Below are positions 4,590 to 64,000 of a DNA stretch of 64,000 nucleotides, one piece after another. A program made the translations under genes and the position numbers. Source of the DNA: Ustilaginoidea virens (taxonomy: Eukaryota; Ascomycota; Sordariomycetes; Hypocreales; Clavicipitaceae); contig NC_057321.1 in assembly GCF_000687475.1 (NCBI RefSeq), positions 2,852,001 through 2,916,000 of the forward strand, written 5' to 3'. How positions within the stretch are numbered: the first letter of the stretch is position 1; every line of letters starts with the position of its first letter. The notes below the pieces were generated by a model. The model worked only from the letters and a program-made list of their open reading frames with translations, made no database searches and had not been told where the DNA came from.

Positions 4590-5621
4590 GCCTTAGAGTC
4601 GGAAAAATCGCCCTCTATTGTTAATTAGTCCTCCGCTAGGGACCAATCATATCGCTAATTACTACGCCGCAATATCCTTAAATCCGTATATAAGCCAATT
4701 GCTAAATATAGGAAGGATTTGTCTATAAGTATAGCGGATATAGTTATATAATTGACGGAGTCGTATAGTCATCAATTAGGAATAGTATAGTAGAAGCATA
4801 TAGAAGTTCGTCGTTATGCCGCTAACTAGAGGTTAACCGATGCAGCTAGGAACATTATGAAAAATTTTTCGCTAACTACTAGCTAGAAATCTCCCTATAG
4901 TCTTTATTATTTTTTATTAGGGGCTCTTTTCCTTTTTCCCTTCTTCCTATTAAGGCTATTAATAAGCATTAAAGGTCCCTATCGTTATAAGTTTTATCCT
5001 ATATTAAGCCTATATTGCATACTAATCGGTTAAAGTATTATTCCCGCCCTAATTGCATTAGTATTCCTTACCGAATTCTATTTTTATTATAACCTACTAC
5101 TGACTCCTTTTGTAGTGAGACCTAGTATAGCCTGTTATAAAGCCTATTAGTAAGTCTTAAGTCCCTACCTATATTATAAGCGTTTTATGCTAACCCTATT
5201 TAGAACCCGAAAATATCTTTATCTGCTGCTAATAGTATTCCTACTAGGGAAGGAATAGGTCTTATTTATTCCTAAAAGCTATACTGCGCTACTAGCGATT
5301 ATTTTCTAGAGGGGGACTCCTTGGATAAAGAGAATTAGTATATAAAGGATGAAGAGTTCCTATATAATAGATATACTAAGTATATATAAGCGACCGGAGA
5401 GCTACCTATTTATAAGCATTATAGAAAAGCAAAGGGGTATAAAAGCTACGCCGATTCCCATACATCCTATATATAGCTTAATTAATATCTCGCGGGGAAC
5501 CCTATACTATAATGCATCTTATACAACTAGATTAAAGCAATAAAGGAGGGGAGGGCTATTATAAAGCCCGCTTATCTTAAGATAGATATACAAAAAGCAT
5601 ATACTATTATCTTAACCCCCG
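4590..5621 (+). pseudogene. Chr1-A antisense ORF, part 1 (unknown product)
   Basis: Reading frame on the strand opposite to gag-pol, starting just inside the 3' LTR. Short landmarks are FFANYQLEI (near 4863), DSLDKEN (5315) and RKAKGYKSYADSHTSYI (about 5425), with stops read at Gln-like positions. It is interrupted at 5621 by Lin1 and continues at 20354-20399 and 35381-36090. The same frame is conserved in Chr1-C and, at lower identity, Chr1-B, where the central segment reads DKEYKYAYNKEFLYKRY. I recognise no domain family. The start codon is not clear. About 590 codons in total. Confidence 0.7.
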
Positions 5622-25104: not shown

Positions 25105-25445
25105 TGTCGGAATCGCTGTCGCAAGGTGCCCAATTGGGCACATTGCGACGGATGTGCCGCGCACACCCGATGCGCACGATGTGGCCACTTTGGCCCCTTT
25201 TGCCCCTTTACCCCTGAGCCCGGTAGGGCACGCGGGCAGCCCGGCCCGACTGCGCCGATGCACGTGACAATGGCACGCACAAAAAGGCCATATCGTGTAA
25301 TTACTCTTTTGCTTCCTTTCTTTCCTCTTAGTTAGTTATAGTTATAATCAAAGAAGTAATTATACCTTTGACCGGTGACCTTATAGTACTTGATACCACG
25401 CGCGCGACCCTACGTATAACTGGGTACCCCTTGATGCAACCAATA
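25105..25445 (+). repeat. Cop3-B 5' LTR (341 bp)
   Basis: TGTCGGAATCG...GCAACCAATA, with the terminal CA changed to TA. Contains GTGCCCAATTGGGCAC. Confidence 0.95.
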
Positions 25446-25908
25446 CTGATCAGTGAAGTTGAAGTTCACTTTATAGATTAGCTAGGACCAGTAAGAAGAG
25501 ACGGTTTAATCAAATCGTGCTAATAAGGAACGTGATCTAGCCTATTTAGAGGAATGGCTACGGATGTTACGAACTAAGGGATAAACTGATTGTGTCTAAC
25601 CTTCCCTATTCGTCTATCACGAGGAATAATCGCTAAATATCACACTGATAGTGTAATAGCTAGTGAATACCATTAGTAGGCATATAAACGCAGGTTCTTA
25701 CGCAAGCGACTCAGAGCCTTATAACGGTAAAAAACCTTTTTACCGTTATATTTAATAGTTAAATAAGCAACCGGAACGCCTATAATATCCTGCCCGACTA
25801 TTGCTTCCTTCCTTACTTCCTTCCTGACCTTCTTCCCTACTTCCTTTCTTCCTTCTTTTTATTAATTACTTCCTTCTTTTTTTTATTAATTACTTCCTTC
25901 TAATATAT

Positions 25909-31887: not shown

Positions 31888-32178
31888 CTGCATTTGGAAG
31901 GTATTGGTGATATCATAGGTGGCAAGTGTGTGGATTTTCCTATGTTTAATATTATGTTGTTTTACTGCGTTTACTACTGCCCCTTTTTGCCCTTTTGTTT
32001 TGGCTGCGATATTCAATATACCGGCTATACGGTATGAGCCTGTACAAGCCGGCCGCGCGGCGCGATAGCGTTATCGGCGGCATAACCTGCCGAGACCGCG
32101 CCGCACTTTTCTTTCTATATATGCGCCTTACATCCTAGCGATTCCGATATTTACTTCTATAAAAAGAGAAGCTGCCAG

Positions 32179-32519
32179 TGTCGGAATCGCTATCGCAAGG
32201 TGCCCAATTGGGCATATTGCGACGGATATGCCGCGCACACCCGATGCGCACGATATGGCCACTTTGGCCCCTTTTGCCCCTTTACCCCTAAGCCCGGTAG
32301 GGCACGCGGGCAGCCCGGCCCGACTGCGCCGATACACGTGACAATAGCACGCACAAAAAGGCCATATCGTGTAATTACTCTTTTGCTTCCTTTCTTTCCT
32401 CTTAGTTAGTCATAGTCATAATTAAAGAAGTAATCATACCTTTGACCGGTGACCTCACGGTACTTGATACCACGCGCGCGACCCTACGTACAACTGGGTA
32501 CCCCTTGATGCAACCAACA
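32179..32519 (+). repeat. Cop3-B 3' LTR (341 bp)
   Basis: TGTCGGAATCG...CAACCAACA. Same length as the 5' copy; the terminal CA is intact. Confidence 0.95.
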
Positions 32520-34675: not shown

Positions 34676-35380
34676 TATTGCAAAATAGTGACTTAGAACA
34701 CTATTGGAAAGTATACTAAGTACCGACAGTGGCGTACAAGGCGTTGCAGAATAAAACAAAGAGCTGGTTAAAGATTTAAGCGCACAAGAGGTTAACCAGA
34801 GCAAAGATGTCAGGGAAATCTGATTCTAATTGTTGGTAACTATTCTAGCTAGAAAGAGGGAATTTTAGACATATTTCTACTATTTTAAAAAAGCGGTTAA
34901 AAATAATGAAAAACCGCAAAGATAGCGAAAAAACCTGACGAAAAGTCGGCCTGCCCAACCGTGCCCAATATCCTACCCAACCAAGCCCAGTGGCTTGTAG
35001 CGGTGTGCCGGATGCCCTATAACAGCCTGCCGTACGGGCCGGAAGCCCTATACCGGTGTGCCGTAAAGGCGCGGTGTAGTGGGTGACTGTATGTAGAAGG
35101 CCGAAAGTGCGGTATTAGCAAGATTTGCCCATTTGGTAATCCCGTAGAAATGCGCCGCCTATTGTGGGCCCTGTTGGCCCACTGTAACCGGCCGCTGTGG
35201 CCGGATGTGGGTCGCTGTGCCGGTGCCGTGACCGGCGCTGTGGCCCACTGTAATCGGCGTTGTGGGGCGCTGTGCCCCACCATAGCGCCTGGTATAGCCA
35301 CCGCGATATCTCAACGTAAAGACGTCGTACGGTAGCGAGACCAGTACCAAAATACAGCTAAAAAGGCGCTGATTTCAACA
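34676..35380 (-). repeat. Cop2-B 5' LTR (705 bp)
   Basis: Plus-strand ends are TATTGCAAAATAG and GATTTCAACA. Same length as its 3' LTR, and carries the hairpin array. Confidence 0.95.
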
Positions 35381-36090
35381 ATTATACTTTCGCTGCTAAG
35401 CAGGTGGCCCCTTATACCCTACGTTTAGTATTCGGGCCAAAAGATGCCTCTAATATGGTTTCTACTATATCTATAGCGTTAACGCCCTCCCGGCGCTAGG
35501 CTAGGTCCGTTATAGATCTCGCCTTTATGCTAAATATTATAAGGGAAATATAAATAGAAGCCTAGGAATATTATGCCAGGATAGAGTAGTATTAGGTTAA
35601 AGCTTAACGTCCCTAGCTACCCCTGCCCTTATCTCGGCCCGCCCTCTTTATATATTATATAGAAGGGGAACTATTATACGACTAGGGCGGCTAATACTAT
35701 ATAGAGGCTCTACTGCTATTAGCATAAGGTTATCTAATATAACCCCCGCAATAGTAGGCAGAACCCGCTCTATAGCCCCCTACGCCCTCGCTATCTTTAT
35801 TATAGCTACTACTATAAATACCGTATTATCCGGCCCTATCTTATTAAAAGGTCTTATCGTCTCCTAATATACCCCTACTATATTCGCCTTATAGTAGCCT
35901 ATAGACTCTATTATATTATAGATATATAGGGAACTATCCCTGTCTAATATATAGCTTATATATATGCTTTAGCCCATAAGGACCCCTGCTGCTATTAGCC
36001 TATATACTGCTATAGGAATAGGAGGAGGCTTAAGGAGATAAAGAGTGGCCCTAGGAGGGGGCATATTAAGGGTAAGCCTATATCGGCCCT
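35381..36090 (+). pseudogene. Chr1-A antisense ORF, part 3 (C-terminal half)
   Basis: Continues in frame from 20399. Landmarks are VAPYTLRLVFGPKDASNM, then LNIIREI followed by EYYARIE (about 35530-35590), YYIEGELLYD (about 35655) and a Leu/Ser/Pro-rich tail. Chr1-C reads LNIIREI and EYYTRIKQY; Chr1-B reads LSIIQDT and EYYSYIKW. The end is placed before the T-rich spacer at 36095-36160, where the convergent pol gene stops. The termination codon is uncertain. Confidence 0.68.
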
Positions 36091-36697: not shown

Positions 36698-38122
36698 GAA
36701 GTAGCTTATTCGATTAGGTTAATATAAAAAACTAAATAAATACCTTATAGGATATTAAGCTAGATATTAAGTAGTAATAGGACGGTAATAATAGTATATT
36801 TAGTAAAGACCTAATCGAGCTTCTTATATAGGTAGTTCGTTTTAATATTCTAAAGGCTTAATTATACCTAGTCGCTAACCTAAAAGCGTTCGGCCGGGCA
36901 TTATAAACGGTTAATAGTATCTTATTATTATTATTATATAAAGGTAATAGCGGCTTAGGCTAATTCCTATCCCTCTTTAAGGTTGCTAAAAAAGAGAGCT
37001 ATATGCCCCTTTAGGGTAATTAAGCTTAAAGTTACCTCTAGAGGCAAAGCGATAATTAGAATATTAAACCTATTAAGTAGCCGGTTTAAGCTAAACCTAG
37101 TAACGGATGATATCCAGTTATTTAATGCAAGTTAATATACCACGAGATGGTATAGCTAATCGTACTAATTAAAGGAAACTATAATATAGAGGACCGCTTA
37201 TACCTCTTAGTTTATTCGCTCTATACTGCTATCGGTTTAGGGGTAGTATACTATTAAAAGAAGTTGCTTGGTCCTAGCTGATTTATATAGCGTAGACTAA
37301 AATTAGCCTATTTAATCCGAACCTTAATCGCTAATAATCTCCTTAGGAAAATTATAAAAGCGCTATTAGCACTATTGGAACCGCTTTGCGCAATCTTCTG
37401 CTTTTATTAAATATATAGCTTTAAGCTAGATATATTTTAATAGGCGGTCTATAATCACTATAAGGAATCGAGGGTTAGATGTATTATAGGCAGGAAGGTT
37501 AGTTATAAAGTCGACCGATATCTATAACTAGAAGCAGTCTACAATTAGTAGTAGTTATAGTAAGCCTTAGCGCAATTAACGGCTCTTATGCACCCTACGG
37601 TATCGGCAATTCTAGATGTATCTTGCTACCTTAGACGATATATTATCGAAGTAATAATCTTATCGCAATAGTTAAAAAGTAATATTTTTCCCTAGGTGGC
37701 CCGCAATAGATAAGTTATAGTAATATTGGATTACCGTAGTGGTTAAGGGCTTAAATGATGGGAGCTATACCTATACCCGGTAAAAAAGCATGCTGTATAT
37801 ATTTAAGGTATAATTAGTAATTTGTTCTTATATTGCTACCTCTACTAGAAATCGTTATTCCCTATTTGCAACTACCATCTATTGGGCCCGATATATACTA
37901 TCTTTAGATATCGCTTAGTCCTAAATAATTTAAAGGTAGGAGTTAGTAAAGATATATAGGCCGTAAGGTAGGGTGGTCTTTAGGGCTAAAGTTAGTATCT
38001 TTTTGCCTTCTATCTTATCTATATTAAGTGCTAAAATAGATAGTAGTTTTAGGATTTAGTCGATTTATAGCTTTGCCCTATCTGCCTTTTATTCCTATTG
38101 AAAAAGCATATTAGGGCATTAA
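36698..38122 (-). pseudogene. Chr1-A integrase and end of RNase H region
   Basis: Matches Chr1-C from about 43025 back to about 41610, reversed. Heavily decayed. Cut at 38122 by Chr1-C, with target duplication ATTAA (left) and ATTAG (right), one G>A apart. Confidence 0.88.
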
Positions 38123-38364
38123 TATCACGGGCACGGGCTACGCCCGCGCCACAATATGGCTAGGACTCGGGCTGCGCCCGCGACTAGCCTAAGGAGTATC
38201 GGCACGGGGTCACGAGGGCTCGCTAAAGACTCGGCCTATACTACATACGGGTATAAATAGACTACTTAGAGGCCCCTATTCGGGTCCTCTCTCTTTCCTC
38301 CTTAGTCTATTTAATATATTTATTCGACGCCTATTCGCAGTAGCCCTAGGGCCAGTCCTTTACA
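38123..38364 (+). repeat. Chr1-C 5' LTR (242 bp)
   Basis: TATCACGGGC (decayed TGTCACGGGC) to CCTTTACA. It holds AGTCTATTTAA at 38304-38314, complementary to the primer site next to the LTR. Confidence 0.95.
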
Positions 38365-38376
38365 TTTAAATAGACT
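38365..38376 (+). promoter_or_regulatory. Chr1-C primer-binding site, self-priming type
   Basis: TTTAAATAGACT immediately after the LTR. Its last 11 bases are the exact reverse complement of AGTCTATTTAA at 38304-38314 in the LTR. This matches the Tf1/sushi mechanism, in which the 5' end of the element RNA folds back as primer. It predicts that transcription starts at or near 38304. Confidence 0.72.
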
Positions 38377-38418
38377 CTCTTAGCCTTACTGTTATAACCT
38401 TATATTATAGAGCTAATG

Positions 38419-39690
38419 ATGCAGGCTATATAAGATATCGAGATAAATACACCTGGAGAAACGGGCCTAAATAACCCGAGACTATAATGCCCCTGACGTA
38501 ATATATATACCCGAGTGGAGCAATTTGCAATAGGGTTATAACAGATAGAGGCGTAAATACAGACTAATACGCAATACCTTACTGCTATTACTGCCTCGCT
38601 ATAGACCCTTCTTGCGAACCAGTTAAATAGCTCTTAAAACGCCACCTAACCGGCCCCGGTCGTATAATAGTATAACCCCCTCCCTACTACTTAAGATACC
38701 TAGCTAAAGTATAAGCCGATCCCGATAAAGGACCCCTTTAATGGCAAAAAGGCTATATTTATAGCCTAGCGGACCTTTATATAATATAAGCTTAAGGTCG
38801 ATAGGGACTTTATTAGAGACGAAAAGACCTAATAGATATTTATCTTTTAAAACCTATCGTCTATAGTCTAATTATAAGTCGCGGCCTTCTTTAAGAATAA
38901 TACGGCTTATAATTATAATATAATAAAGTTCTTCGAATACCTCTAATATTTCTTTAAAGACTTATACTAGTAGGATCGCGTTATTATTAAGCTTAAGTAT
39001 TCCTTATGCTAGGGCCTAAAGGAACCTTTTGCCGCCTTTTTTATACGATTTAAGGAAAAATTTATACTTATTAGTAGTCTCGGTTAGCCTAAGGAAGTCA
39101 AGCTAGAATATCTCTAATCGGCACTTAATACTTATATAGCTAATAAGATTATTAGCCTTAGGGTCTCCTATTACGATTACTACTCGGTAGTAGACTACTA
39201 CTAATAAATTGCTATTAATATTAAGACCAGCCTAACTATTAACTACTAACCAGGCTCGGCCTATTCCTAATTAACTTATACCTAGGATTCCGAGGGCGAT
39301 ATATAAATATCGGGCATTAATAAGCTAGACTCAAAGGGTAATTAGCGTATATTTAAAGCGATATAGGTCTCTAAAGAATGATATAAAGATTATAGAAAGA
39401 AAGGTCTCTATCTTTAGTATAATTCTCCTAAATATTAGATATTTATATATTATTTACTACCGGTAATCCAACCTAATGCAATTAAAGTAGCCTTATTTAA
39501 CTTATAAATTATAGAGGTCGAAAGTAGCAATAAAGATTAGGAAAAAGAATAGCTTTTAAACTTAGTCTCATTAGAGGGCTTAAAATATATATATAGACCC
39601 TAGCTCGATTATAAAAGGAATTAGAGGAGATTATAAAATAAATAGATAAACACCCCTTTTTAATACCAATCTTATATAAATCCTATACCT
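38419..39690 (+). pseudogene. Chr1-C gag
   Basis: ATG 38419, followed by QAI-stop-DIEI and RVEQFAIG (about 38513). The capsid-like part reads KLKVDRDFIRDEKT (about 38790), FFKNNTAYNYNIIKFFEYL (about 38890) and GLKEPFAAFFIRFKEKF (about 39013), typical of the gypsy gag family. A decayed CX2CX4HX4C zinc knuckle sits near 39410. Gag is in frame 1 and pol in frame 0 of this window, the same -1 relation inferred for Chr1-B, suggesting a -1 shift to make gag-pol. The gag end is approximate. Confidence 0.82.
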
Positions 39691-42600
39691 TTATTAATAC
39701 CTTAATCGATTTAAGATATAATTATTATAGCGCTATAACCGAAAAGATAGTATAATGGTTAGGCTTTTAACCTATCCGCCTATTATAATATAGGGAAATC
39801 GGAATAGTAGTAGATATTTAAAGCCGTTAAAGAGAATATAAAGTAATATATTCCTCTATTACTTATATTATCTATATGGCGATCGATATCGATAGATAGC
39901 CGTCTATAGTTATACTTTATATTATCTTAAGTCTTACCTATAATATTATCTTTAGGATGCCTTAGATAGAATACTATAATATTATATTATAGGCGAAATA
40001 GCGCTAATTAAAGATTAAATTAGTAGGTAGCCTTACTATTAAAGAATCGATAAGAAGACGATAGGGTCTAACTATAGTAAATATCTTTAGCTTAATCTTC
40101 TATAGTATACTAAAGCGGGCGAAACGCTCTAAAGATTAATCGACTTCTTTTATTATAATAAGCTTATAGGAGATAATATATATCCTCTATATTATACTGC
40201 TACTTTATTAAAATTCTGCCTTACGATCGTAAGAGCTATAGGTACTCCTAACGAAATTATAGGAATTTACCGACCTTTTTAATAAGGAGAAGGCTTTTAG
40301 TCTCTTTCCGCACTAGGGTATATTAGACTACTATATCCAGCTTAAAAAGACTATAGATAGGAGCTAACTAGACCTACCTTAGGGCCTATTATATAATATG
40401 CTACGAGACTAATTACTTAAGGTTTAGAGATAAGTAATTAACCTAATAGATAAAGGATAGATTTAAGTAAGCTTTTTATCGGCAGCGGTACTAATCCTAT
40501 TAGCTAGAAAGGGGAATAGTAGGTAATGTTTTTATATCGATTACCGCGCCCTTAATAAGGTTATAATCTAAGACTAATACCCCCTCCCCTTAATTAAAGA
40601 GACCTTACAATCCCTATTTTAGGCGAAATAGTTTACTAAGGTTAACGTATATATAGTATTCTATAAGATATATATTGCAGAAGGCGATAAATACTTAACT
40701 GCATTCTATATACGATTTAGACTATTTGAATAACTTATTATACTATTTAGCCTAATTAAGGCCCTTACGACCTTTTAAAGATATATTAATAGGGCCTTAC
40801 GGAATATATTAAGAGACTTTATAACTGCCTACCTTAATGATATTTTGATTTATACTAGGGGATTAAAGGCGGACTATATAGGGCGCATTAAAGAAGTCCT
40901 TTAATGACTATAAAAGGCCGGCTTAAATTTAGATTTTAATAAGTGCGACTTCGCAGTAAAAAAGGTCTAGTACCTAGGATATATTATAACGGCTGGAAAG
41001 GAAATCTATTTAGACCCTAAAAAGATTAAGGCTATCTAGAACTAAAAAGCACCTATGAAATTAAAAGGCATTTATAATTTCCTTAGTTTTACTAATTTCT
41101 ACTATAATTTTATTTTAGATTTCTTTTGCTTTATTGATCCTTTAGTTAGGTTAATAAAAAAAGGGGTTTTATTCTAATAGCTAAACGAAGAAGAGGTAGT
41201 ATTCTAAGTGCTTAAGCAGTATTTTATATTATCTCCAGTTCTTACCTAATAGGACCCTAATAAGGAGATAATCTTTAAGGCAGATAGTTTTAATACGGCC
41301 TTTAGTAGCTATCTATTATAAATTAAGGAGGATAGTATACTCTACCTTATTATATACTATTCCGCTCGCTTATTGGATACGGAATAGAATTATACTATAT
41401 ACGATAAGGAACTTTTCGCTATTATCTTTTGCCTTAAGGCATGGTTAATAGAACTCTACTTAATAGCCTCTCCTTTTATTATCTTTACCGACTATAAGAA
41501 CCTAGAGTATTTCGCCCGACTATAAGAAATATCTAAACGATAAGCCTAATAGGCTAAGACTCTAATACTCTTTAACTTCTATCTTTAGTATAGGCTAGGG
41601 TTATAAGCCTAATGCCTTAATACGCTTTCTTAATAAAAATAAAAGGCAGATAGGGTAGAGCTATAAACTAGCTAGATCCTAAAACCGCTATTTATTTTAA
41701 TACTTAATATAAATAAAATAGAAGGCGAGATAATACTAACTTTAGCCCTATAGACTACTTTACCTTATAGCCTATATATCTTCGCCGACTCCTACCTTTA
41801 AGCTATTTAGGACTAAGCGATATCTAAAGATAGTATATATCGGGCCTAATAGATAGTAATCGTAAATAGGGAACGACGATTTCTAGTAGAAGTAGCGATA
41901 TAAGAATAAATTATTAATTATACCCTAAATGCATATAGTATACTCCTTTACCGGGCATAAGTATAGCTTTTATCGTTTAAGCCCTTAACCACTATAGTAA
42001 TCCAATATTACTATAATTTACCTATTGCAGGCTACCTAGGGAAAAACACTACTTTTTAACTATTATAACGAGATTATTACTTTAATAATATATCGTTTAA
42101 GGTAGCGAGATATATTTAGAATTGCCGATACTATGGGATATATAAGAGCTATTAATTGCGCTAAGGCTTACTGTAATTACTATTAATTGTAGACCGCTTT
42201 TAGTTGTAGATATTAATCGACTTTATAACTAACCTTTCTATCTATAATATATCTGACCTGCGATTCCTTATAGCAATTATAAACCGTTTATTGAAATATA
42301 TTTAGCTAAAAGCTATATACTTAATAAAAGCAGAAGACTATATAGAACGGTTCTAATAATACTAATAGTACTTTTATAGTTTTCCTAAGGAGATTATTAG
42401 CAATCGAGGTTTAGATTAGGTAGGTTAATTTTAGTTTATACTATATAAATTAATTAGGACCGAGCAACTTCTTTTAATAGTATACCACCCCTAAACCGAT
42501 AGCGGCATAAAGCGAATAAACTAAAAGGTATAGGCGGTCCTCTATATTATAGTTTCCTTTAATTAGTACGATTAGCTATACTATCTCGCGGTATATCAAC

Positions 42601-43340
42601 TTGCGTTAAATAACTAGATATTATCTATTACCGGGTTTAGCCTAAACCGGCTGTTTAATGGGTTTAATATTCCGATTATCGCCTTACCTCTAGAGGTAAC
42701 CTTAAGCTTAACTACCTTAAAGGGGTATATAGCTCTCTTTCTTAGCAACCTTAAAGAGGGATAGGAATTAGCCTAAGCCGCTATCGCCTTCGCATAATAA
42801 CGATAGTAAGATACTACTAACCATTTATAATATCTGGCCGAATGCTTTTAGGTAGTCGATTAGGTATAATTAAACCTTTAGAATATTAAAACGAATTATC
42901 TATATAAAAAGCTTAATTAGGTTTCTACTAAATATACTATTATTACTATCTTATTACCGCTTAATATCTAGCTTAATATCCTATAAGGTATCTATTTAGT
43001 TTTCTATATTAACTTAATCGAACGAGCTACTTTTAATCTATTACCCAATTAGGTAATAACTAATATATAACTTAGGCCCCTATTTATCCTCTTATAAGAC
43101 TTAATAAACCTATACGAAAAGTATAAAGTAGAGGAGATACTTATAGCGAAAAATATATAGAATTAAAGACGGAAATACAATATACTTATAAAATAGAAAA
43201 GGTATGATTTACCAATATAGGAACCCCTAGAAAACTTTAAGGATACTATTATACGAGAAATATTTAAGGCTAAATAGGGGGATATTAGGACTTACGATAG
43301 GCCTAACTAGGTCTTAAAATAGGGTCTATTAGACCGGTAA
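39600..43340 (+). pseudogene. Chr1-C pol: protease, RT, RNase H, integrase, chromodomain
   Basis: One frame from protease to chromodomain. The protease site is LID followed by a decayed SG and YNYYSAITEKIV (39702 on). RT has DYRALNKVII (40539) and YLND at 40830-40841, where YLDD is expected. RNase H/connection has FTDYKNLEYFA (about 41489). Integrase has a decayed HHCC finger around GYLGKNTTF (42030) and a DDE core near 42215-42500. The chromodomain (43113-43270) reads YEKYKVEEILIAKN and KYNILIK then KRYDLP...EPLENFKD. The stop at 43338-43340 is present in all three copies. The chromodomain would target integration to methylated H3K9 chromatin. Catalytic Asp lost. Confidence 0.9.
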
Positions 43341-43430
43341 ACGATGCTAAATGCCTACTACTAAAAAAAATAAAATAAAATAATAAAAATATTTTAAAAA
43401 AAATAAATAAATAAACTAAACTAAGGCTGA
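43341..43430. other. AT-rich spacer between convergent Chr1 frames
   Basis: Runs of AAATAAAATAATAAAAATATTTT lie between the pol stop and the end of the antisense ORF. Equivalent spacers are at 52010-52065 in Chr1-B and 36095-36160 in Chr1-A. It could supply poly(A) signals for both strands; this is inference. Confidence 0.5.
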
Positions 43431-45190
43431 GATAGGCTTACCTTTAATATACCCCCTCTTAAGGCTATTCTTTATCCCTTTAAGCCTCTTTATATTCCTA
43501 TAGCGGCGTATAGGCTAATAGCGGCGGGGGTTTTTATAAGGTAGGGCGTGCATATAGGCTATATATTAGACGGGGATAATTCCCTATACGTCTATAATAT
43601 AATAGAATCTATAGGCTACTGTAAGGTAAATATAGCGGTAGTGCACTAAGAGACGATAAGACCCTTTAATAAAATAGGGCCAGACGATATAGCATCTATA
43701 GCAGCAGCTATAATAAAAATAGCAAAAGCGTAAAGGGCTATAAAGTAGGGTCTTCCTACTATTATAAAGGTTATATTAGGTAACTTTATGCTAGCGGCAG
43801 TAGAGCCTCTATATAATACTAGCCGCTTTAGTCGTATAATGGTTCCCCCCCTATATAATATACAGGGGCGGGCTAAGATAGGGGTAGGGGTAATCGGGGA
43901 TATTAAGCTCTAACCTAGTATTGCTTTATCCTAGTATAATATTCCCAGGCTTCTATTTATATTTCCCTTATAATATTCAGTATAAGGGCGAGATCTATAA
44001 TAGACTTAGCCTAGCGCTAGGAGGGCGTTAATACCGCGGATATAGTAGAAACTATACTAGAGGTATCTCTTAGCCCGAATGCTAAACGCGGGGCGTAAGG
44101 GGCCACCTATTCGGCAGTAAAAGCATAATGCTATTAATTATTTAAAACCCGAAACTCAAGGGTTAGGATAGTAGTATATACTTTCTATATATCTATTTTA
44201 AGATAGGCAGGCTCTATAATAGCCTTCCCCTCCTTTACTGCCTTAATCTAGTTATATAAGATATATTATAATATAAGGTTCCCCGTAAGATATTAATTAA
44301 GCTATACGCAGGATGCATAGGAATCAGTATAGCTTTTATACCCTTTTGCTCTTTTATAATACTTATAAATAGGTAGCTCTCCAGTCGCTTATATATACTT
44401 AGTATATCTATCGCATAGGAATCCTTTATCTTTTATATACTAATACTCTTTATCTGAAGAGTCCCCCTCTAGAAGATAATCGCTAGTAGTATAGTATAGC
44501 TTCTAAAGATAAGTAGGACCTATTCCTTCCCTAGTAGGGATACTATTAGCGGCAGACGAGGATATTTTCGGGTTCTAAACGGGATTAGTATAAGACGCTT
44601 ATAATATAGGTAGGGACTTAAGACTTACTAATAGGCTTTACGATAGGCTATATTAGGTCTCGCTACGAAAGGAGTTAATAGTAGGTTGCAATAAAGATAG
44701 AATTCGGTAAGGAATACTAATGCGATTAGGGCGGGAATAATACTTCAACTAATTAATACGCAATATAAGCTTAATATAGGATAAAACTTACGACGATAAG
44801 GACCTTTAATACTTATTAATAGCCTTAAGAGGAAGAAAAGAAAAAGGAAAAAAGCCCCTAATAAGAAATAATAAAGACTATAGGGAGATTTCCAGCCGGC
44901 AGCTAGTAAAAAATTTTCTATAACATTCCTAGCTATATCGGTTAACCTCTAGCTGGCGGCATAATAATAAACTTCTATACGCTTCTACCATACTATTCCC
45001 AATTGATGACTATACGACTCCGTTAATTATATAACCACATCCGCTATGCTTACAGACGAATCCTTCCTATACCCGGCAATTAGCCTATATACGGATTTAA
45101 GGATATCGCGGTATAGTAATTAGCGATATAATTGGTCCCTAGCGGAAGACTGATTAACGATAGAGGGCGATTTTTCTGATTCCGAGGAAG
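43431..45190 (-). pseudogene. Chr1-C antisense ORF (unknown product)
   Basis: Reads from just inside the 3' LTR towards pol, on the minus strand. Landmarks are EGDSSDKEY, YIKDKGFLCDRYTKYI, ATGELPIYKYYKRAKGYKSY, AYLKIDI, TLEFRVLNN, LALILNIIREI and YYIEALLPLA, aligning with Chr1-A without gaps over long stretches. Stops fall at Gln-like positions (TAA, TAG). About 590 codons. No transmembrane pattern, catalytic motif or known family is evident. The C-terminal third is Leu/Pro/Ser/Tyr-rich and probably disordered. Start codon and exact ends are not fixed. Confidence 0.68.
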
Positions 45191-45202
45191 AAAAGGGGGG
45201 TA

Positions 45203-45444
45203 TATTATAGGCTCGGGCTGTATTCGCGCTACAATATAGCTAGAACTTAGGCTGCGCCTACGACTAGCCTAAAGAGTATCGGCATAGGGTTACAAGGGCT
45301 CGCTAAGGACTCGGCCTATACTATATATAGGCATAAATAGACTACTTAGAGGCCCCTATTCGGGTCCTCTCTCTTTCCTCCTTAGTCTATTTAATATATT
45401 TATTCGACGCCTATTCGTAGTAGCCCTAGGGCCAGTCCTTTACA
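45203..45444 (+). repeat. Chr1-C 3' LTR (242 bp)
   Basis: TATTATAGGC...CCTTTACA, preceded by the purine tract GAAGAAAAGGGGGGTA (45187-45202). More decayed at CpA sites than the 5' copy. Confidence 0.95.
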
Positions 45445-46773: not shown

Positions 46774-47015
46774 TGTCACGGGCTCGGGCTACGCCCGCGC
46801 CACAATATGGCTAGGACTCGGGCTGCGCCCGCGACTAGCCTAAGGAGTATCGGCACGGGGTTATAAAGGCTCGCTAAGGACTCGGCCCGTGCTATATACG
46901 GACATAAATAGGCTACTTAGAGGCCCCTATTCGGGTCCTCTCTCTTTCCTCTTTAGTCTATTTAATATATTCATTCGACGCCTATTTGCAGTAGCCCTAA
47001 GGCCAGTCCCTTATA
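46774..47015 (+). repeat. Chr1-B 5' LTR (242 bp)
   Basis: TGTCACGGGC...CCCTTATA (terminal CA decayed to TA). AGTCTATTTAA is at 46955-46965 and the complementary primer site TTTAAATAGACT at 47016-47027. Confidence 0.95.
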
Positions 47016-47069
47016 TTTAAATAGACTCTCTCAGCCTTACTATTATAACCTTACATTATAGAGCCAATA

Positions 47070-48330
47070 ATACAGGCTATATAAGATATCGAGATAGGCA
47101 CACTCGGAGAACTAAGTAGAGAGAATCTAAAGCTACGACGCCCCTAATATAATATATATACCCAAATAGAGCAGCTTGCAATAGGGTTATAATAGATAGA
47201 GGCGCAGATGTATACTAATACGCAGTACCTTACTGCTATTACTGCCTCGCTGTAGACCCTTTTTGCGAATTAGTTAAATAGCTCCTAAAATGCTACCTAA
47301 TTGGGCCCGGTCGTATAATATAACGCCCCCCTCCCTACTACTTAGGATACCCAGCTAAAGCGTAAGCCGATCCCAATAGGGGACCCCTTTAATAGCAAAA
47401 AGGCTATATTTACAGTCTAGCAGACCTTTATGCAATATAAGCTTAAGGTCGATAGGGACTTTATTAGAGATAAGAAGACCTAATAGATATTTATCTTTTA
47501 GAACCTGTCGTCTATAGTTTAATTATAAATCGCAACCTTCTTTAAGAATAATACGGCTTGTAATTATAATATAATAAAGTTTTTTAAATACCTCTATTGT
47601 CTCTTTAAGGACCTATACCGGTAGGATCGCGCTATTACTAAGCTTAAGTACTCCTTATGCTAGGGCCTAAAAGAGCCTTTTGCCGCCTTCTTTATGCGAT
47701 CTTATGCTTACTAGCGGCCTCAGTTAGCCTAAAGAGGTTAAACTAGAATACCTCCGATCGGCGCTTAATACTTATATAGCTGATAAGATTATCGGTCTTA
47801 GGGTCTCCCGTTATAATTACTATTCGGCGGTAGACTATTACTAATAAATTGCTATTAATATTAAGATTAGCCTGATTATTAACTACTAATCGGGCTCGAA
47901 CTATTCCTAACTAACCTATGCCTAAGATTCTAAAGGCAATATATAAATATTAGGCGTTAATAAGCTAAACTCGAAGGGTAATTAATATGCATCTAAAGCG
48001 ATATAGGTCTCTAAAGAATAATATAAAGATCGTAAAAAGAAAGGTCTTTATTTTTAGTATAGCTTTTCTAAGCATTAGATATTTATATATTACCTACTGC
48101 CGGCAATCCGACCTAATATAACTAAAGTAGCCTTATTTAATTTATAAATCGTAAAAGTCGAAAGTAGCGATAAAGATTAAGAAAAAAAATAGCCTTTAAA
48201 CCTAGTCTTATTAGAGGGCTTAAGATGCATATATAAACCCTAGCCCGATTATAAAAGGAATTAAAGGAGATCGCAAAATAAATAGATAAATACCCCTTTT
48301 TAGTACCAATCTTATATAAATCCTATACCT
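47070..48330 (+). pseudogene. Chr1-B gag
   Basis: Start codon decayed to ATA at 47070. Capsid-like part as in Chr1-C (KLKVDRDFIRDKKT, about 47440). An 11-bp deletion near 47700, relative to Chr1-C, removes part of RFKEKF and shifts the frame. A zinc-knuckle remnant lies near 48050. End approximate. Confidence 0.8.
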
Positions 48331-51300
48331 TTATTAATACCTTAATCGACTCGGGATATAACTACTATAGTGCTATAAGCGAAAAAATAGTATAACGGTT
48401 AGGCCTCTAACCTATCCGCCTACTATAATATAGGGAAATCGGAATAGTAGTAGATATTTAGAGCTATTTAGGAGAATATAAAGTAATATATTCCTCTATT
48501 ACCTATATCGTCTGCGTAGCGATCGATATTAATAGATAGCTATCTATAGTTATACTTTACGTTATCCTAGGCCTTACTTGCAATATTATCCTTAGGATGC
48601 CTTAGATAGAGTACTATAACGTTATACTATAAGTAAAGCAGCGCTAATTAAAGATTAAATTAGTAGGTAGCTTTATCGTTAAGGAATCGATAAGAAGATA
48701 ATAGGGCCTAACTATAGTAAATATCTTTAGCTTAGTCTTCTATAGTATACTAAAATAGGCGAAACGCTCTAGGGACCAGTTAACCTTTTTTATTGCAATA
48801 AGCTTATAGGAGATAATATATATCCTCCGTATTATACTTCTACCTTATTAAAATTCTGTCCTATGATTATAGAAACTATAGGTACTCCTAATAGAATTAT
48901 AGGAATTCGCCGACCTTTTTAATAAGGAGAAGGCTTCTAGTCTCCTTTTATACTAGGGTATATTAGACTACTATATCCGGCTTAAAAAGACTAAGGATAG
49001 GAGCTAATTAGACTTACCTTAGGGCCTATTATATAATATGCCATAAGACTAGTTACTTAAGGTTTAGAGATAAATAATTAACCTAATGCATAAAGGATAA
49101 ATCTGTATAAGCTCCTTATCGGTAGTAGCACTAGTCCTATTAGCTAGAAAGGGGAATAGTAGATAGCGTTTTTATATTAACTACTGGGCCCTTAATAAGG
49201 TTATAGTCTAAGACTAATACCTCCTCCCCTTAATTAAAGAGACCTTATAATCCCTATCCTAGGCGAAATAGTTTACTAAGGTTAATATACATATAGCATT
49301 CTATAAGATATATATTATAGAGAGCGATAAATACTTAACTATATTCTATATACGATTCGGACTATTTAAATAGCTTATTATGCTATTTAGCCTAATTAGG
49401 GCCCCTATGACCTTTTAAAGATATATTAATAGGGCCTTAGGGAATATACTAGGAGACTTTATAATTACCTACCTCGATAATATTTTAATCTATACCGGGG
49501 GATTAAAGGCAGACTATATAGGGTGCATTAAAGAAGTCCTTTAATAACTACAAAAGGCCGGCTTAAATTTAGATCTTAATAAGTGCAACTTTATAGTAAA
49601 GGAGGTTTAATACTTAGGATATATCGTAATAGCCGGAAAGGAAATCTATCTAAACCCCGAAAAGATTAAAGCTATCTAGAACTAAGAAGTACCTATGAAA
49701 TTAAAAGGCATTTATAGTTTCCTTAGTTTTACTAACTTTTACTATGACTTTATCCTAGATTTCTCCCGCCTTATCGACCCTTTAGTTAAATTAATAAAGA
49801 AAGGGGTCTTATTCTAATAGCTAAATGAAAAAGAGGCGGTATTCTAAGCGCTTAAGTAGTATTTTATATTATCTCTAGTTCTTGCCTAATAGGACCCTAA
49901 TAAAAAGATAGTCCTTAAGGTATATAGTTCTAATATAGCCTTTAGTAGCTATCTATTATAGATCGGGGAGGATAATATACTCTACCCTATTGCATATTAT
50001 TCCGCTTACTTATTAGATGCAGAATAGAATTATACTATATACGATAAAGAACTTTTTACTATTATCTCTTGCCTTAAGGTATAATTAGTAGAACTCTACT
50101 TAATAGCCTCCCCCTTTATTATCCTTACCGACTATAAGAACCTAAAGTATTTCGCCTAACTATAAGAAATATCTAAGCGATAAACCTATTAGGCTAAGAC
50201 TTTAGCGCTCTTTAACTTCTATCTTCGGTATAAGCTTAGGTTATAAGCCTAACGCCTTAATATGCTTTCTTAATAGGAATAAAAGGCAGATAAAGGAAAG
50301 CTATAAATTAGCTAGATCTTAAAACCGTTATCTATTTTAGCACTCGATATAGATAAGATAGAAAGCAAAAAGATACCAATTTTAGCCCTAAAGACCACCC
50401 TACCTTGCGGCCTATATATCTTCGCTAATTCCTACCTTTAAGCTATTTAAGACTAAGTAATATCTAAAGATAGTATATATTAGGCCTAATAGACAGTAGT
50501 TACGAATAGGGAATAACGATTTCTAATAAAAGCGGCGATATAAGAATAAATTGCTAATTATACCTTAAATACATATAGTATACTCCTTTACTAGGCATAG
50601 GTATAGCTCCCATCATTTAAGCCCCTAACCATTACAGTAATCTAATACTACTATAACTCGCCTATTACAGGCTACTTAGGAAAAAATACTACCTTCTAAT
50701 TATTACGATAGGATTATCACTTTAATAATATATTATTTAAGGTAATAAGATACATTTAGAATTGCCGATACTGCGGGGTGTATAAGAGCCGCTAATTGCG
50801 CTAGGGCCTATTATAACCGCTACTAATCGCAGACTGCTTTTAATCGTAAATATTAGTCGACTTTATAACCGACCTTCCTACCTATAATACCTCTAACCTA
50901 CAATTCCTTATAGTGATTATAGACTACTTATCGAAGTATATCTAGCTTAAGGCTATACACTTAATAAAAGTAAAAGACTGCGCAAAACGCTTCTAATAGT
51001 ATTAGTAGCGCTTTTATAGCTTCCCTAGGGAGATTATTAGCAATTAAGGTTCGGATTAGGTAGGCTAATTTTAGTCTATACTATATAAATTAATTAGGAC
51101 TAAGCAACTTCTATTAATAGTATACCACCCTTAAACTAATAGCGGCATAAAGCAAATGAACTAAAAAGTATAGGCGGTCCTCCGTATTATAATTTCCTTT
51201 AATTAGTATAATTAGCTATATTATCTTACGGTATATTAACTCGTATTAAATAACTAGATATTATCTACTACCGGGTTTAGCCCAAACCGGCTACTTAATA

Positions 51301-51990
51301 GGTTTAATATTCCGATTATTGCCCTACCTCTAGAGGTAACCCTAAGCTTAACTATCCCGAAGGGGCATATAGCTCTCTTTCTTAATAACCTTAAAGAGGG
51401 ATAGGAATTAGCCTAAGCTACTATCGCCTTTATATAATAACAATAGCAAAATACTATTAACCATTTATAATGCCCGGCCGAGCGCTTCTAGGTTGGTAAT
51501 TAGGTATAATTAAACCTCCGGAATATTAAAATAAACCGCCTATATAAGAAGCTCGATTAGGTCTCTACTAAATATACTATTATTACCATCCTATTACTAC
51601 TTAATATCTAACTTAATATCTTATAAGGCATTTATCTGGTTTTCTATATTGACCTAATCGAATAAGCTGCTTCCGATCTATTACCTAATTAGGTAATAAC
51701 TAATATATAACCTAGGCCCTTACTTATCTTTCCCTAAGACTCTATAAACCTATATAAAAAGTATAAAGTTAAGGAGATACTTATAGCGAAGAATACATAA
51801 GGCTAAAGATAGAAACGCAATATACTTATAAAGTAGAAAGGGTACGACTTACTAATATAGGAACCTTTAGAAAACTTTAAGGATACTACTACACAAGAAA
51901 TATTTAAGGCTAAATAGGGGGATATTAGGACTTATAATAGGCCTAGCCGGGTCCTAAAATGAGGTCTATTAGACTAATAAATGACGCCAA
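48250..51990 (+). pseudogene. Chr1-B pol with chromodomain
   Basis: Protease active site LIDSGYNYYSAI is intact at 48342-48377. RT has YLDN at 49470-49481, so the second Asp is lost, whereas Chr1-C lost the first; the ancestor must have been YLDD. Integrase is decayed. The chromodomain (51753-51910) reads YKVKEILIAKN and KRNILIK then KGYDLL...EPLENFKD. Same domain order and frame as Chr1-C. Confidence 0.88.
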
Positions 51991-52079
51991 ACGCCTACCA
52001 CTATAAATAAAAATATAAAATAATAAAAATACTTTAAATTAAAAAAAAAAATAATAATAATAATAACGATACTAATATG

Positions 52080-53850
52080 CCCCTCTCTTAGGTTAATACC
52101 ACCCCTCCTCTTTTCCGGCTCTATAGCTATATTATTCGCCCCTATATAGGCCTTCCCTAGTATTATACGGATCGGTATAACCTAGCGGCGGCTATAGCTA
52201 TTGCAAATAGCCCTTAGGATAATACCCCTAGAGGTTCGGATGCGTATATAGCGAATAGTTTAAACGCGGATAATTGCCTATCCGCCCATAATAGGACGGT
52301 ATCCCGGGAGATATATTATAGGCCGAATAAGAAGGGGGATATAATAAGGCCTAAACCGAATGCTATAGGGTGTGCGGCTAGGACTACTACAGTAGCGGCT
52401 GAGATTACTGCGGCGGCGGCTATAATAGCAGTATTAGTAGCGGCAGTTGCTGCGAAGATAGTTGCAGACGCTATATATAAGCTTCTAGATAAGCCTATAC
52501 TTCCTACTTATATATAGGCGGCCCCTTAGGGTAGTATAATAGTATAAAGCGAGCCGGCAGGGGTCCTAAATAGGGATATATAGGGGCTAATAAGAACCAC
52601 TTTATATAGGAGTAATACTCCTAGGCCTCCCTTTAGGTATCCTATATTATACTTAATATAGGAGCTAGATTGATAATCGACTTAGCCTATTAGTGGGAAG
52701 GAGTTATAGCCTAAGAGATACTAGCCGATTCCTCCTTAGCAGCATTATAGGACCTAAAGGTAAGATATAAGATATAGGGGGTTATTTATTCGGCGGCTAT
52801 TATATAATACTATTAGTCGTTAAAGGCCCGAAAAGAGGGCAAAAAGATAGCAGCCTAAGCCTTAATTATTTCTATCGCGGGCTATATATACTTAATAATA
52901 GTAGTCCTATCCTTATAGGCTTTTACCTATACTTAGTAGATCTATCGGAGCCTTAGATTCCTAGCTAACTTAAAGTCTAGCTATATATATAAGCTATACG
53001 CACTTTAGCAGTAGGTGTATCCCTTACTTTTGCCTTTTTGCTCGCAAATAGGGAAAACCCTAATCGACTGTATTTTTTTATTATATCGCTTATATAGGAA
53101 CTCTTTATTATAGGCGTATTTATACTCTTTATCAGACGAATTACCCTTAAATAGGTAATTACTTATAGCATACTACGGCTTTAGTCTAATCTCTAATGGG
53201 TTAGGACGCACTAAAGAGAGTCTACTTATAGGTCGCGGGATCTCTACGATATTAAGATCTATAGGGGTATTAATACCGCCTACGGTAGGGCTGCTACTAG
53301 GGTTCGGATCGGATATAATTAGGTCTTAATATAGTTAATTGAGAGAATCTATAAAGTCGGATTAAGGTAGAATCGATATATAGGCTTACTAGAATAGGAA
53401 TAGGGTATAATCTTATTAATAAATTAGCTCTAACGTTCTAACCCTAAGCGGAAGACGATACTCATAGTTACAATACTAATAATAATTATAGCGGCTATAG
53501 GGAGGAAAAGGGAAGAAAAAAAGGTAGGAAGAATAGGCGCAATAAGAAAAACACCCTCGCCTAGGGGGATCTCTAACTAATAGCTAGCGAAAAAATTTTA
53601 TAATACTTCCGGCTGCCGCAGGCAATCTCTAGCTAGCGATGCAACGCCAGACTTCTATATATTTCTACTATATTATACCCAGGTTGACTACTCTACGAAT
53701 CCTTTAATTATACGAGCCAAACCCGATATCTATATATATATATATTGCTCCGACAATTTAAGAATATCGCGATAAAAATCCTAGCGACCTTATTGGTCTG
53801 CGCGGCAGAAGGGTAGGTTACGGGATATAATTAATCCGATTGCGATATAG
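52080..53850 (-). pseudogene. Chr1-B antisense ORF, divergent version
   Basis: Same position and strand as in Chr1-A and Chr1-C, but DNA similarity is low. Protein-level landmarks still align: FFASYQLEIPL (Chr1-A FFANYQLEISL), DKEYKYAYNKEFLYKRY (Chr1-A DKENQYIKDEEFLYNRY), FLPSFRAFND (Chr1-A LTPEFRALNN) and LSIIQDT...EYYSYIKW. Stops are again at Gln-like positions. That the protein is better conserved than the DNA argues for a real gene. Confidence 0.62.
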
Positions 53851-53862
53851 AAGAGGGGGGTA

Positions 53863-54104
53863 TATTACGGGCTCGGGCTACGCCCGCGCCACAATATAGC
53901 TAGGACTCGGGCTACGCCTACGACTAGCCTAAAGAGTATCGGCATAGGATTATAAGGGCTCGCTAAGGACTCGGCCTATGCTATATACGGATATAAATAG
54001 GCTACTCAGAGGCCCCTATTCGGGTCCTCTCTTTTTCCTCCTTAGTCTATTTAATATATTCATTCGACGCCTATTCGCAGTAGCCCTAGGGCCAGTCCCT
54101 TACA
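53863..54104 (+). repeat. Chr1-B 3' LTR (242 bp)
   Basis: TATTACGGGC...CCCTTACA, preceded by the purine tract AGAAGAGGGGGGTA ending at 53862. Confidence 0.95.
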
Positions 54105-56636: not shown

Positions 56637-57352
56637 TGTTGAAATCAGCGCCTTTTTAGCTGTATTTTGGTACTGGTCTCGCCACCATACGACGTCTCTG
56701 CGTTGAGATATCGCGGTGGCTATACCAGGCGCTATGGTGGGGCACAGCGCCCCACAACGCCGATTACAGTGGGCCACAGCGCCGGTCACGGCACCGGCAC
56801 AGCGCCCCACAGCCGGCCACAGCGGCCGGTCACAGCGGGCCACAGGGCCCACAACAGGCGGCGCATTTCTACGGGATTACCAAATGGGCAAACCAGCACT
56901 TTCGGCCTTCTACATATAGTCACCCGCTATACCGGTCATTTACGGCAGACCGATATAGGGCTTCCGGCCCGTACGGCAGGCTGTTATAGGGCATCCGGCA
57001 CACCGCTATAAGCCACTGGGCTTGGTTGGGTATGCACTGAGTAGGATATTGGGCACAGACTGGGCACGGTTGGGCAGGCCGACTTTTCGTCGGGTTTTTT
57101 CGCTATCTTTGCGGTTTTTCATTATTTTTAACCGCTCTTTCAAAATAGTAGAAATATATCTAAAATTCCCTCTTTCTAGCTAGAATAGTCACTAATAATT
57201 AGAATTAGATTTCCCTGACATCTTTACTCTGGTCAACCTCTTGTGCGCTTTAAATTTTTAACCAGCTCTTTGTTTTATTTTGCAACGCCTTATACGCTAC
57301 TGTCGGTATCCAGTACATTTCCAACAGTGTTCTGAATCACCATTTTGCAATA
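56637..57352 (+). repeat. Cop2-A 5' LTR (716 bp)
   Basis: TGTTGAAATC...TTTTGCAATA (terminal CA decayed to TA). Hairpin array at 56737-56852. Confidence 0.95.
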
Positions 57353-63405: not shown

Positions 63406-64000
63406 TGTTGAAATCAGCGCCTTTTTAGCTGTATTTTGGTACTGGTCTCGCCACCATACGACGTCTCTGCGTTGAGATATCGCGGTGGCTATACCAGGCG
63501 CTATGGTGGGGCACAGCGCCCCACAACGCCGATTACAGTGGGCCACAGCGCCGGTCACGGCACCGGCACAGCGCCCCACAGCCGGCCACAGCGGCCGGTC
63601 ACAGCGGGCCACAGGGCCCACAACAGGCGGCGCATTTCTATGGGATTACCAAATGGGCAAACCAGCACTTTCGGCCTTCTACATACAGTCACCCGCTACA
63701 CCGGTCATTTACGGCAGACCGATATAGGGCTTCCGGCCCGTACGGCAGGCTGTTATAGGGCATCCGGCATACCGCTATAAGCCATTGGGCTTGGTTGGGT
63801 ATGCACTGAGTAGGATATTGGGCATAGACTGGGCACGGTTGGGCAGGCCGACTTTTCGTCGGGTTTTTTCGCTATCTTTACGGTTTTTCATTATTTTTAA
63901 CCGCTCTTTCAAAATAGTAGAAATATATCCAAAATTCCCTCTTTCTAGCTAGAATAGTCACCAACAATTAGAATTAGATTTCCCTGACATCTTTGCTCTG
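63406..64000 (+). repeat. Cop2-A 3' LTR, truncated by the window
   Basis: TGTTGAAATC start; nearly identical to 56637-57230 over its visible length, with hairpin array at 63506-63621. High similarity to its partner suggests recent insertion. Confidence 0.95.

What the first reader, a model, noticed from the sequence alone, without database searches (positions are those of the whole stretch)
43431..45190. Conserved antisense gene in the chromovirus Chr1, between pol and the 3' LTR
Seen: in Chr1-C (minus), Chr1-B (minus 52080-53850) and Chr1-A (plus, in three pieces) the strand opposite to gag-pol holds one frame of about 590 codons, broken almost only by TAA/TAG. In the A/C versus B comparison the DNA has diverged strongly, but the encoded protein still aligns (FFANYQLEI/FFASYQLEI; DKENQYIKDEEFLYNRY/DKEYKYAYNKEFLYKRY; LTPEFRALNN/FLPSFRAFND). 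Known: antisense ORFs in this position are described in plant Ty3/gypsy elements of the Tat lineage (such as Grande and RIRE2). I know of no described fungal chromovirus with one. Inference: the gene was under protein-level selection in living copies and would be transcribed from the 3' LTR side towards pol.
Basis: partly seen in the sequence, partly recalled or inferred. Interest (0 to 1): 0.9.

Follow-up and report, generated by a model that had tools for sequence, protein, structure and literature searches.

The report
Swappable antisense six-cysteine gene in retrotransposon
Dead copies of a jumping gene in a rice-infecting fungus carry, on the opposite strand, an extra gene for a protein with a six-cysteine pattern like that of metal-binding proteins, and related copies have exchanged that gene as a block while the rest of the element stayed almost the same.

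Summary
The antisense gene is real but smaller than reported. Between three subfamilies (C, B, D), RIP-insensitive transversions fall mainly on third positions of one antisense frame (C|B 44/51/107). That frame aligns best in 440 of 440 copy pairs compared, and 13 of 13 group-level gaps inside it are multiples of three (5 of 31 upstream). The supported exon is about 340 codons (43480-44502, minus), not 590. (2) The gene is a swapped cassette: window copies C and B differ by at most 1% transversions in 16 of 17 bins from LTR through pol, by 16-26% in the core of 43364-45188, and by almost none in the 3' LTR. B cassettes sit beside at least two pol types. Best reading: an exchangeable accessory gene, probably a nuclear regulator; function, expression and zinc binding are inferred. 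The claim of no fungal precedent is wrong (Boty brtn).

The parts
38123..45444 (+). Chr1-C, full-length RIP-mutated element: 5' LTR 38123 to about 38365, gag, pol (stop at 43338-43340), antisense cassette, 3' LTR about 45203-45444; 5-bp target duplication ATTAA/ATTAG (one RIP-type difference)
   Evidence: LTR repeat and flanks; RT and RNase H Pfam hits and an Integrase_H2C2 hit just below its cut-off; pol stop in 8 of 8 C copies
43364..45188 (-). Exchanged antisense cassette: first and last transversion between Chr1-C and Chr1-B; flanks almost free of transversions
   Evidence: same pattern at coarser resolution with 8 C, 5 B and 3 D loci
43480..44502 (-). Main antisense exon, about 340 codons; the codon at 43480-43482 is a stop in 38 of 38 C copies (taken as the end, not proven)
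   Evidence: codon phase of transversions and multiple-of-three gaps, fixed R/Y test and six-frame scores, stop columns
44308..44415 (-). Six-cysteine motif C-x2-C-x12-C-x8-C-x2-C-x6-C (exon residues 30, 33, 46, 55, 58, 65)
   Evidence: codon columns alternating TGY/TAY without CGY in two or three subfamilies
44880..44999 (-). DNA block conserved between the three cassette types; contains ATG (44989-44991) in this copy; candidate promoter, leader or first exon
46774..54104 (+). Chr1-B, full-length copy with C-type LTR and gag-pol but a B-type antisense cassette; 5-bp target duplication CTCTT/CTCTT
52183..53181 (-). Antisense main exon of Chr1-B (aligned to 43504-44502)
5276..5602 (+). Chr1-A piece of the antisense exon (start half, C type)
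35371..36069 (+). Chr1-A piece of the antisense exon (end half, C type)

Best explanation
The cassette between pol and the 3' LTR carries an antisense accessory gene. Shown: a protein-coding exon of about 340 codons under purifying selection, with a six-cysteine motif near its start (like, but not identical to, a fungal Zn2Cys6 cluster) and a second half rich in proline and tyrosine (and glutamine in B); and block exchange of the cassette between elements, with breakpoints in the window pair at the pol end and at the PPT/LTR border. Inferred: the gene is transcribed from the 3'-LTR side and possibly spliced; the protein binds zinc and then nucleic acid in the nucleus and regulates the element (its LTR, its own cassette or its integration), much as HTLV HBZ does from an antisense transcript; and the exchange arose by template switching between two co-packaged genomic RNAs during reverse transcription, letting an element change its regulator while keeping its gag-pol machinery.
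For: Coding and selection. RIP explains the stops: CpA observed/expected 0.287, and of 13 exon columns that are stop in at least 90% of C copies, 11 keep CAA, CAG or TGG in some C copy. Positive control: the pol sense frame shows the same kind of signature (12, 7, 43). Six cysteines. Relative with open gag and pol: L097 antisense exon, best alignment score 71 against a maximum of 55 in 300 shuffles, mean of 17 rows 46.1 against a maximum of 34.1; hhalign P 7.6e-4 over 78 columns with all six Cys aligned, though its probability is only 25%. Same layout and a similar motif in L104. Exchange: (closest pair C-B in pol in 1000 of 1000 bootstraps, B-D in the antisense region in 1000 of 1000); target duplications show two independent insertions. 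Composition. Earlier proposals of nuclear or regulatory roles for antisense ORFs of LTR elements: PMC7264820 sections 5 and 7.
Against: No transcript, splice or protein evidence. No Pfam or PDB match. No hit in the protein collection among the candidates scored, 2586 and 8000, although the pol found 832 relatives there. The third-cysteine spacing (x11-12) is outside the x6 of the classical Zn2Cys6 pattern (recalled). Residue 46 is Tyr in 38 of 38 C copies, so C-type proteins may have only five of the six cysteines; residues 33 and 58 are TGY in 0 and 1 of 9 D copies, 55 in 1 of 10 B copies. Exon residue 67 is a stop codon in every C, B and D copy compared, which RIP saturation of Gln or Trp can explain but does not prove. 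In D the antisense frame does not have the fewest all-stop columns (15, against 10 in one other frame; counted over the exon). L104 shows no similarity beyond the motif (269 of 300 shuffles reach its best score). L107, complete-looking, has no such ORF. An hmmsearch with the mutated profile ranks the L097 exon seventh at E 7.7, and pairwise BLASTP puts a chance proline stretch first. The part before the main exon is unresolved. Both structure predictions were useless (pLDDT 27.9 and 40.6).
Confidence: 0.55

Rival explanations
1. The six-cysteine protein is a structural or nucleic-acid chaperone factor (a second nucleocapsid-like protein) rather than a transcription regulator.
For: Cysteine motifs of nucleocapsids bind RNA (recalled); the gag of L104 has a CCHC knuckle; no result here shows regulation.
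Against: Antisense expression would make supply independent of gag; the motif is six-Cys, not CCHC; the proline- and tyrosine-rich second half fits regulators at least as well.
Confidence: 0.22
2. The selected product is the antisense RNA (double-stranded RNA or a silencing control), and the frame is incidental.
For: A 120-nt block without detectable codon signal is the best conserved part of the cassette; antisense transcripts can give siRNA (PMC7264820, passage).
Against: Third-position excess and multiple-of-three gaps over about 1 kb; six cysteine columns.
Confidence: 0.07
3. A sense-strand frame (env-like) is the coding one and the antisense frame only mirrors it.
For: The sense frame sharing third positions scores above the other non-antisense frames in C x B and C x D (277 and 289); in some windows positions 1 and 2 look sense-like; in D the two frames differ little in all-stop columns (19 sense, 15 antisense; counted).
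Against: The antisense frame is best in 200 of 200, 160 of 160 and 80 of 80 pairs; in C and B the sense partner has more all-stop columns (15 against 6, and 17 against 7; counted over the exon); the ORFs in L097 and L104 are antisense.
Confidence: 0.03
4. No swap: the antisense gene simply evolved much faster than pol within one family.
For: Accessory genes can evolve fast.
Against: Antisense third positions show 107 of 322 fixed transversions in C|B, while B loci with C-type pol differ from C by 0.1-0.3% in pol; B cassettes 0.4-1.8% apart sit beside both C-type and D-type pol.
Confidence: 0.03
5. The cassette is a host gene captured by the element, not an ancestral element gene.
For: No protein relatives were found among scored candidates; zinc-cluster genes are common in fungi (recalled).
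Against: The same position, strand and six-Cys layout in L097 and L104, elements whose pols are far apart (the L097 pol is 45% identical to Chr1-C over the RT-RNase H part, P0022); a very old capture stays possible.
Confidence: 0.1

Closest known systems
brtn of Boty (Botrytis cinerea, Ty3/gypsy chromovirus)
   Same: Fungal element with CHROMO domain in gag-pol and an additional antisense gene between pol and 3' LTR (PMC7264820 passages; PMC4227169 passage; Zhao et al. 2011 itself not read)
Antisense aORF-3R of plant elements (Grande gene 23, RIRE2, Retand ORF4)
   Same: Position and strand; conserved across copies; nuclear localisation reported for Grande (PMC7264820 sections 5 and 7)
   Different: Plant elements; domains named there for others (SMC, transposase 28) were not found here; the word zinc does not occur in that review
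Fungal Zn2Cys6 (Gal4-type) zinc clusters
   Same: Six cysteines as C-x2-C ... C-x2-C-x6-C
   Different: Second spacing is x11-12, not x6 (recalled consensus); no Pfam hit
HTLV-1 HBZ and other antisense genes of retroviruses
   Same: Would work alike: antisense gene read from the 3'-LTR side, coding a nuclear regulator (HBZ recalled; comparison with retroviral antisense genes made in PMC7264820, passage)
   Different: No homology claimed; expression here untested

Membership tests
Chromovirus (Ty3/gypsy with chromodomain) | LTRs, gag, pol in order RT-RNase H-integrase | tested here: met
   RVT_1, RNase H above cut-off and Integrase_H2C2 just below (23.5 of 25.5 bits) in order in Chr1-C, above it in L050; LTR pair and target duplication. 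No Pfam hit for gag
Chromovirus (Ty3/gypsy with chromodomain) | Chromodomain at the end of integrase | tested here: inconclusive
   No Pfam hit in RIP-mutated copies; the L050 stretch matches chromodomain chains weakly (Swi6 E 0.016; also cpSRP43, CBX3); many relatives and L097, L104 have PF00385
Antisense aORF-3R carriers (Grande, RIRE2, Boty type) | Conserved coding frame between pol and 3' LTR on the opposite strand | tested here: met
   none of 40 copies is open
brtn family | Sequence homology to brtn | not testable with these tools
   brtn sequence not held; no protein hit for the antisense profile
Fungal Zn2Cys6 cluster (PF00172) | C-x2-C-x6-C-x5..12-C-x2-C-x6..8-C (recalled) | tested here: not met
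   C-x2-C-x12-C-x8-C-x2-C-x6-C; no such Pfam match
Env-like additional ORF | Sense orientation after pol | tested here: not met
   Antisense frame best in 440 of 440 pairs

The most novel reading that the evidence does not exclude
Fungal chromoviruses carry an old, widespread antisense gene for a zinc-cluster regulator, expressed from the 3' LTR side, and elements diversify by trading it as a cassette bounded by the pol end and the polypurine tract, so that regulator type evolves independently of gag-pol, comparable to envelope swapping in retroviruses.
Probability: 0.35. Interest if true: 0.85.

Novelty: new variant of a known kind. Interest (0 to 1): 0.72.

Why it matters
Antisense genes of LTR retrotransposons are known from plants and from Boty, but PMC7264820 states that their function is not known. 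A six-cysteine motif gives a concrete biochemical hypothesis for a fungal one, and the cassette exchange shows that the gene is a unit of recombination of its own. Together they make the question of what antisense genes do testable by simple assays (zinc and nucleic-acid binding, chromatin location, antisense RNA). The exchange also warns that subfamilies of elements named from one gene can be chimeras.

Tried and rejected
Stop counting as evidence for a frame: rejected, because frames have similar counts in RIP-mutated DNA. Continuous frame of 590 codons: rejected for the part before 44526. An intron between the conserved block and the main exon is plausible (distance 488 or 491 in most C copies, 491 in 9 of 10 B copies, offset 2 mod 3; D is mixed, 6 of 11) but splice sites could not be fixed; left open. 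Conserved hairpin in the 120-nt block: 11 pairs predicted, 6 with both-side changes, but RIP can change both sides, so not claimed; Rfam gave nothing near a gathering score. Protein searches with the antisense frame: none of 2586 and none of 8000 scored candidates. Pfam and PDB: none. Folds: four window rows with X at stops, pLDDT 27.9; L104 ORF alone, pLDDT 40.6; both discarded, no fold search run. Viral contig scans with P0006 and A3: no relatives; with the L104 ORF one hit, L115, whose other ORFs look phage-like and whose match is a short peptide; rejected. Rows dropped before counts: L044 and L047 (broken at one end) of the 40 C copies; D copies L065, L066, L068 of 11, L066 and L068, six of 11. 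Protein scores used 20 of 38 C copies. Searches used 5 of the 8 B loci that have long flanks (L051-L053 left out) and 3 D loci. Two references were out of frame; the chromodomain question was redone with others. One search was a script error.

Full report
Where it is. The window is G000:C6:2852001-2916000 of a 37,158,136-base genome in 8 contigs. Length and N50 (6,429,791, the length of contig C3) equal those listed for Ustilaginoidea virens UV-8b in PMC13233505 Table 1 (passage), so the host is taken to be the rice false smut fungus. The window is RIP-mutated: no closed ORF of 150 aa exists in 64 kb, and CpA is at 0.287 of expectation in the C copies.

The element. Chr1-C has LTRs at about 38123-38365 and 45203-45444 with a 5-base target duplication ATTAA/ATTAG, RVT_1, RNase H and (just below cut-off) Integrase_H2C2 in one pol frame, and a pol stop at 43338-43340 in 8 of 8 C copies. 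Chr1-B has the same layout at 46774-54104 with target duplication CTCTT/CTCTT. A chromodomain is visible by eye at the pol end and weakly by search (Swi6 chain E 0.016); Pfam did not call it in the mutated copies.

Is the antisense frame a gene? Stops do not decide it: each of 40 copies has 33-56 stops in the claimed frame, and other frames look alike. I therefore used transversions, which RIP does not cause, between three subfamilies in this genome: C (40 scored places of 110 candidates), B and D. In the aligned main exon, fixed purine/pyrimidine differences at antisense codon positions 1, 2, 3 are 44, 51, 107 (C|B), 44, 40, 104 (C|D) and 14, 16, 40 (B|D), with 314-322 sites per position. The pol sense frame, as positive control, gives 12, 7, 43 (C-type against D-type pol). 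Positions 1 and 2 average 0.38-0.44 of position 3, against 0.22 in pol, without correction for saturation or two-fold sites: the antisense protein was under selection, more loosely than pol. The antisense frame gives the best protein alignment in 200 of 200 C x B, 160 of 160 C x D and 80 of 80 B x D pairs (20 of 38 C copies used). All 13 group-level gap entries between positions 864 and 1910 of L057 are multiples of three, against 5 of 31 in positions 247-863 (counted; entries are relative to one copy and not all independent). Of 13 exon columns that are stop in at least 90% of C copies, 11 keep CAA, CAG or TGG in some C copy; of the other two, one keeps CAA or CAG in B and D, and one (residue 67) is a stop in every copy of all three groups. 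The latter may be RIP saturation or a real stop. All-stop columns over the exon, counted: antisense frame 6 (C), 7 (B), 15 (D); sense partner frame 15, 17, 19; so the contrast is clear in C and B, not in D, and another antisense-strand frame in D has only 10.

Extent. The signal begins near 44526-44502 and ends near 43480. Upstream lies a region with off-frame gaps, and then a 120-nt block (44880-44999) with C|B fixed transversions of 3/60 and 3/60 (C|D 6/60 and 3/60), while most other cassette bins have about 7 to 24 per 60. It shows no codon-position pattern, but only 6, 7 and 3 differences are available. It may be a promoter, a leader or a small first exon. In most C and B copies its frame is offset from the main exon by 2 mod 3 (D is mixed), as a spliced gene could be; unproven.

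The protein. No family or database match was found, although the same protein collection returned 832 relatives of the pol at E <= 0.001. Looking at codons instead of residues, columns that alternate between TGY and TAY (Cys, with Tyr by RIP) and never show CGY, in at least two subfamilies, are exactly six in 334 codons: 30, 33, 46, 55, 58, 65; two further columns, 136 and 145, pass in B alone (codons). The spacing is C-x2-C-x12-C-x8-C-x2-C-x6-C. Residue 46 is Tyr in all 38 C copies, so the C type may lack that cysteine. The second half is rich in P and Y, and in Q in B. The motif resembles a fungal zinc cluster but has a longer second spacing than the recalled Zn2Cys6 consensus.

Relatives. 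A pattern scan of prokaryote assemblies with chromovirus pol sequences gave 18 loci, evidently eukaryotic contaminants. L097 (7,656-bp contig NZ_JACJRE010000119.1, labelled Tolypothrix) has open gag and pol with Chromo, 101-bp identical ends, and on the minus strand after pol an exon reading EGDSSDEEHDEDDDPYDACEPC... with C-x2-C-x11-C-x8-C-x2-C-x6-C. It aligns with the U. virens exon (LEGDSSDKEY...) at scores that 0 of 300 shuffles reach, and hhalign pairs all six cysteines (P 7.6e-4, probability 25%). Against this, an hmmsearch with the mutated profile ranks it seventh at E 7.7, and BLASTP with one copy prefers a proline stretch; RIP has replaced most cysteines in those profiles. L104 (8,419-bp contig of an Erythrobacter MAG) has gag, pol with Chromo, a 181-bp identical repeat pair and between them a 427-aa antisense ORF (GTG start) with C-x2-C-x11-C-x10-C-x2-C-x6-C, but no other similarity to ours. 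The motif search found three matches in the 18 loci: these two and a low-complexity one on the plus strand of L099; 20 shuffled sets gave none. L107, complete-looking, has none; most other loci are too short after pol to tell.

Cassette exchange. Aligning Chr1-C and Chr1-B of this window, transversions are at most 1% in 16 of the 17 bins of 300 from 38122 to 43221 (3% in one); none lie between 43131 and 43363; they are 16-26% in the bins from 43522 to 45021; the last of the run is at 45188, and only one more occurs, at 45445 at the very end. With 8 C, 5 B and 3 D loci, pol divergence is C-B 0.019 on average (minimum 0), C-D 0.094, B-D 0.078; in the antisense region it is 0.229, 0.226 and 0.089. 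The closest pair is C-B in pol in 1000 of 1000 bootstraps and B-D in the antisense region in 1000 of 1000. Among five loci with B cassettes that differ by only 0.4-1.8%, four have C-type pol, two of these with the C-type LTR and two with another LTR, and one has D-type pol and a D-like LTR. By short pol ends, of 9 B loci (seven already known with flanks, two more) 5 are C-type, 2 D-type and 2 without a pol match. Of the 40 pol places, 19 were neither in the list nor next to a known B cassette; I fetched the stretch behind 15 of these 19, and in all 15 the best match is the C-type cassette, in 14 over 0.9-1.8 kb and in L085 over 250 nt only. Hence the antisense gene moves between elements as a block bounded, where resolved, by the pol end and the PPT/LTR border. 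Both breakpoints lie where template switching in reverse transcription could act; that mechanism is inferred.

Known and new. The antisense slot is known in plants and in Boty, so the category is not new. The searches made listed no paper recognisable as one on a six-cysteine antisense protein or on antisense cassette exchange in fungal elements; apart from passages of PMC8365987, PMC7264820 (with sections 5 and 7), PMC4227169, PMC5987419 and PMC13233505 I saw listings only, and Zhao et al. 2011 was not available.

Noticed in passing
L097 (NZ_JACJRE010000119.1) and L104, L106, L107 (JAPYPR010000043.1, 51.1, 47.1): Assemblies labelled Tolypothrix sp. FACHB-123 and an Erythrobacter MAG contain chromovirus-like elements, evidently contaminant contigs; a source names a chromovirus polyprotein with the Tolypothrix label (P0022) a DDE-type integrase.
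   Followed up: partly
window 44880-44999: 120-nt block conserved across three cassette types that differ by about 12-40% fixed transversions in most other bins (C|B, C|D); inverted arms around CTAGCT. Function unknown.
   Followed up: partly
window 56637-57055 and 63406-63824: A pair of direct repeats 6.77 kb apart, 99% identical over 300 nt, with a third copy at 19007 (86%); looks like another, younger LTR element.
   Followed up: no
window 3188-3726: Repeat array with a 48-nt period.
   Followed up: no
window 11523-18914 and 25104-32477: Two further LTR-like repeat pairs with 7.09 and 7.07 kb spacing, their insides 84-90% alike.
   Followed up: no
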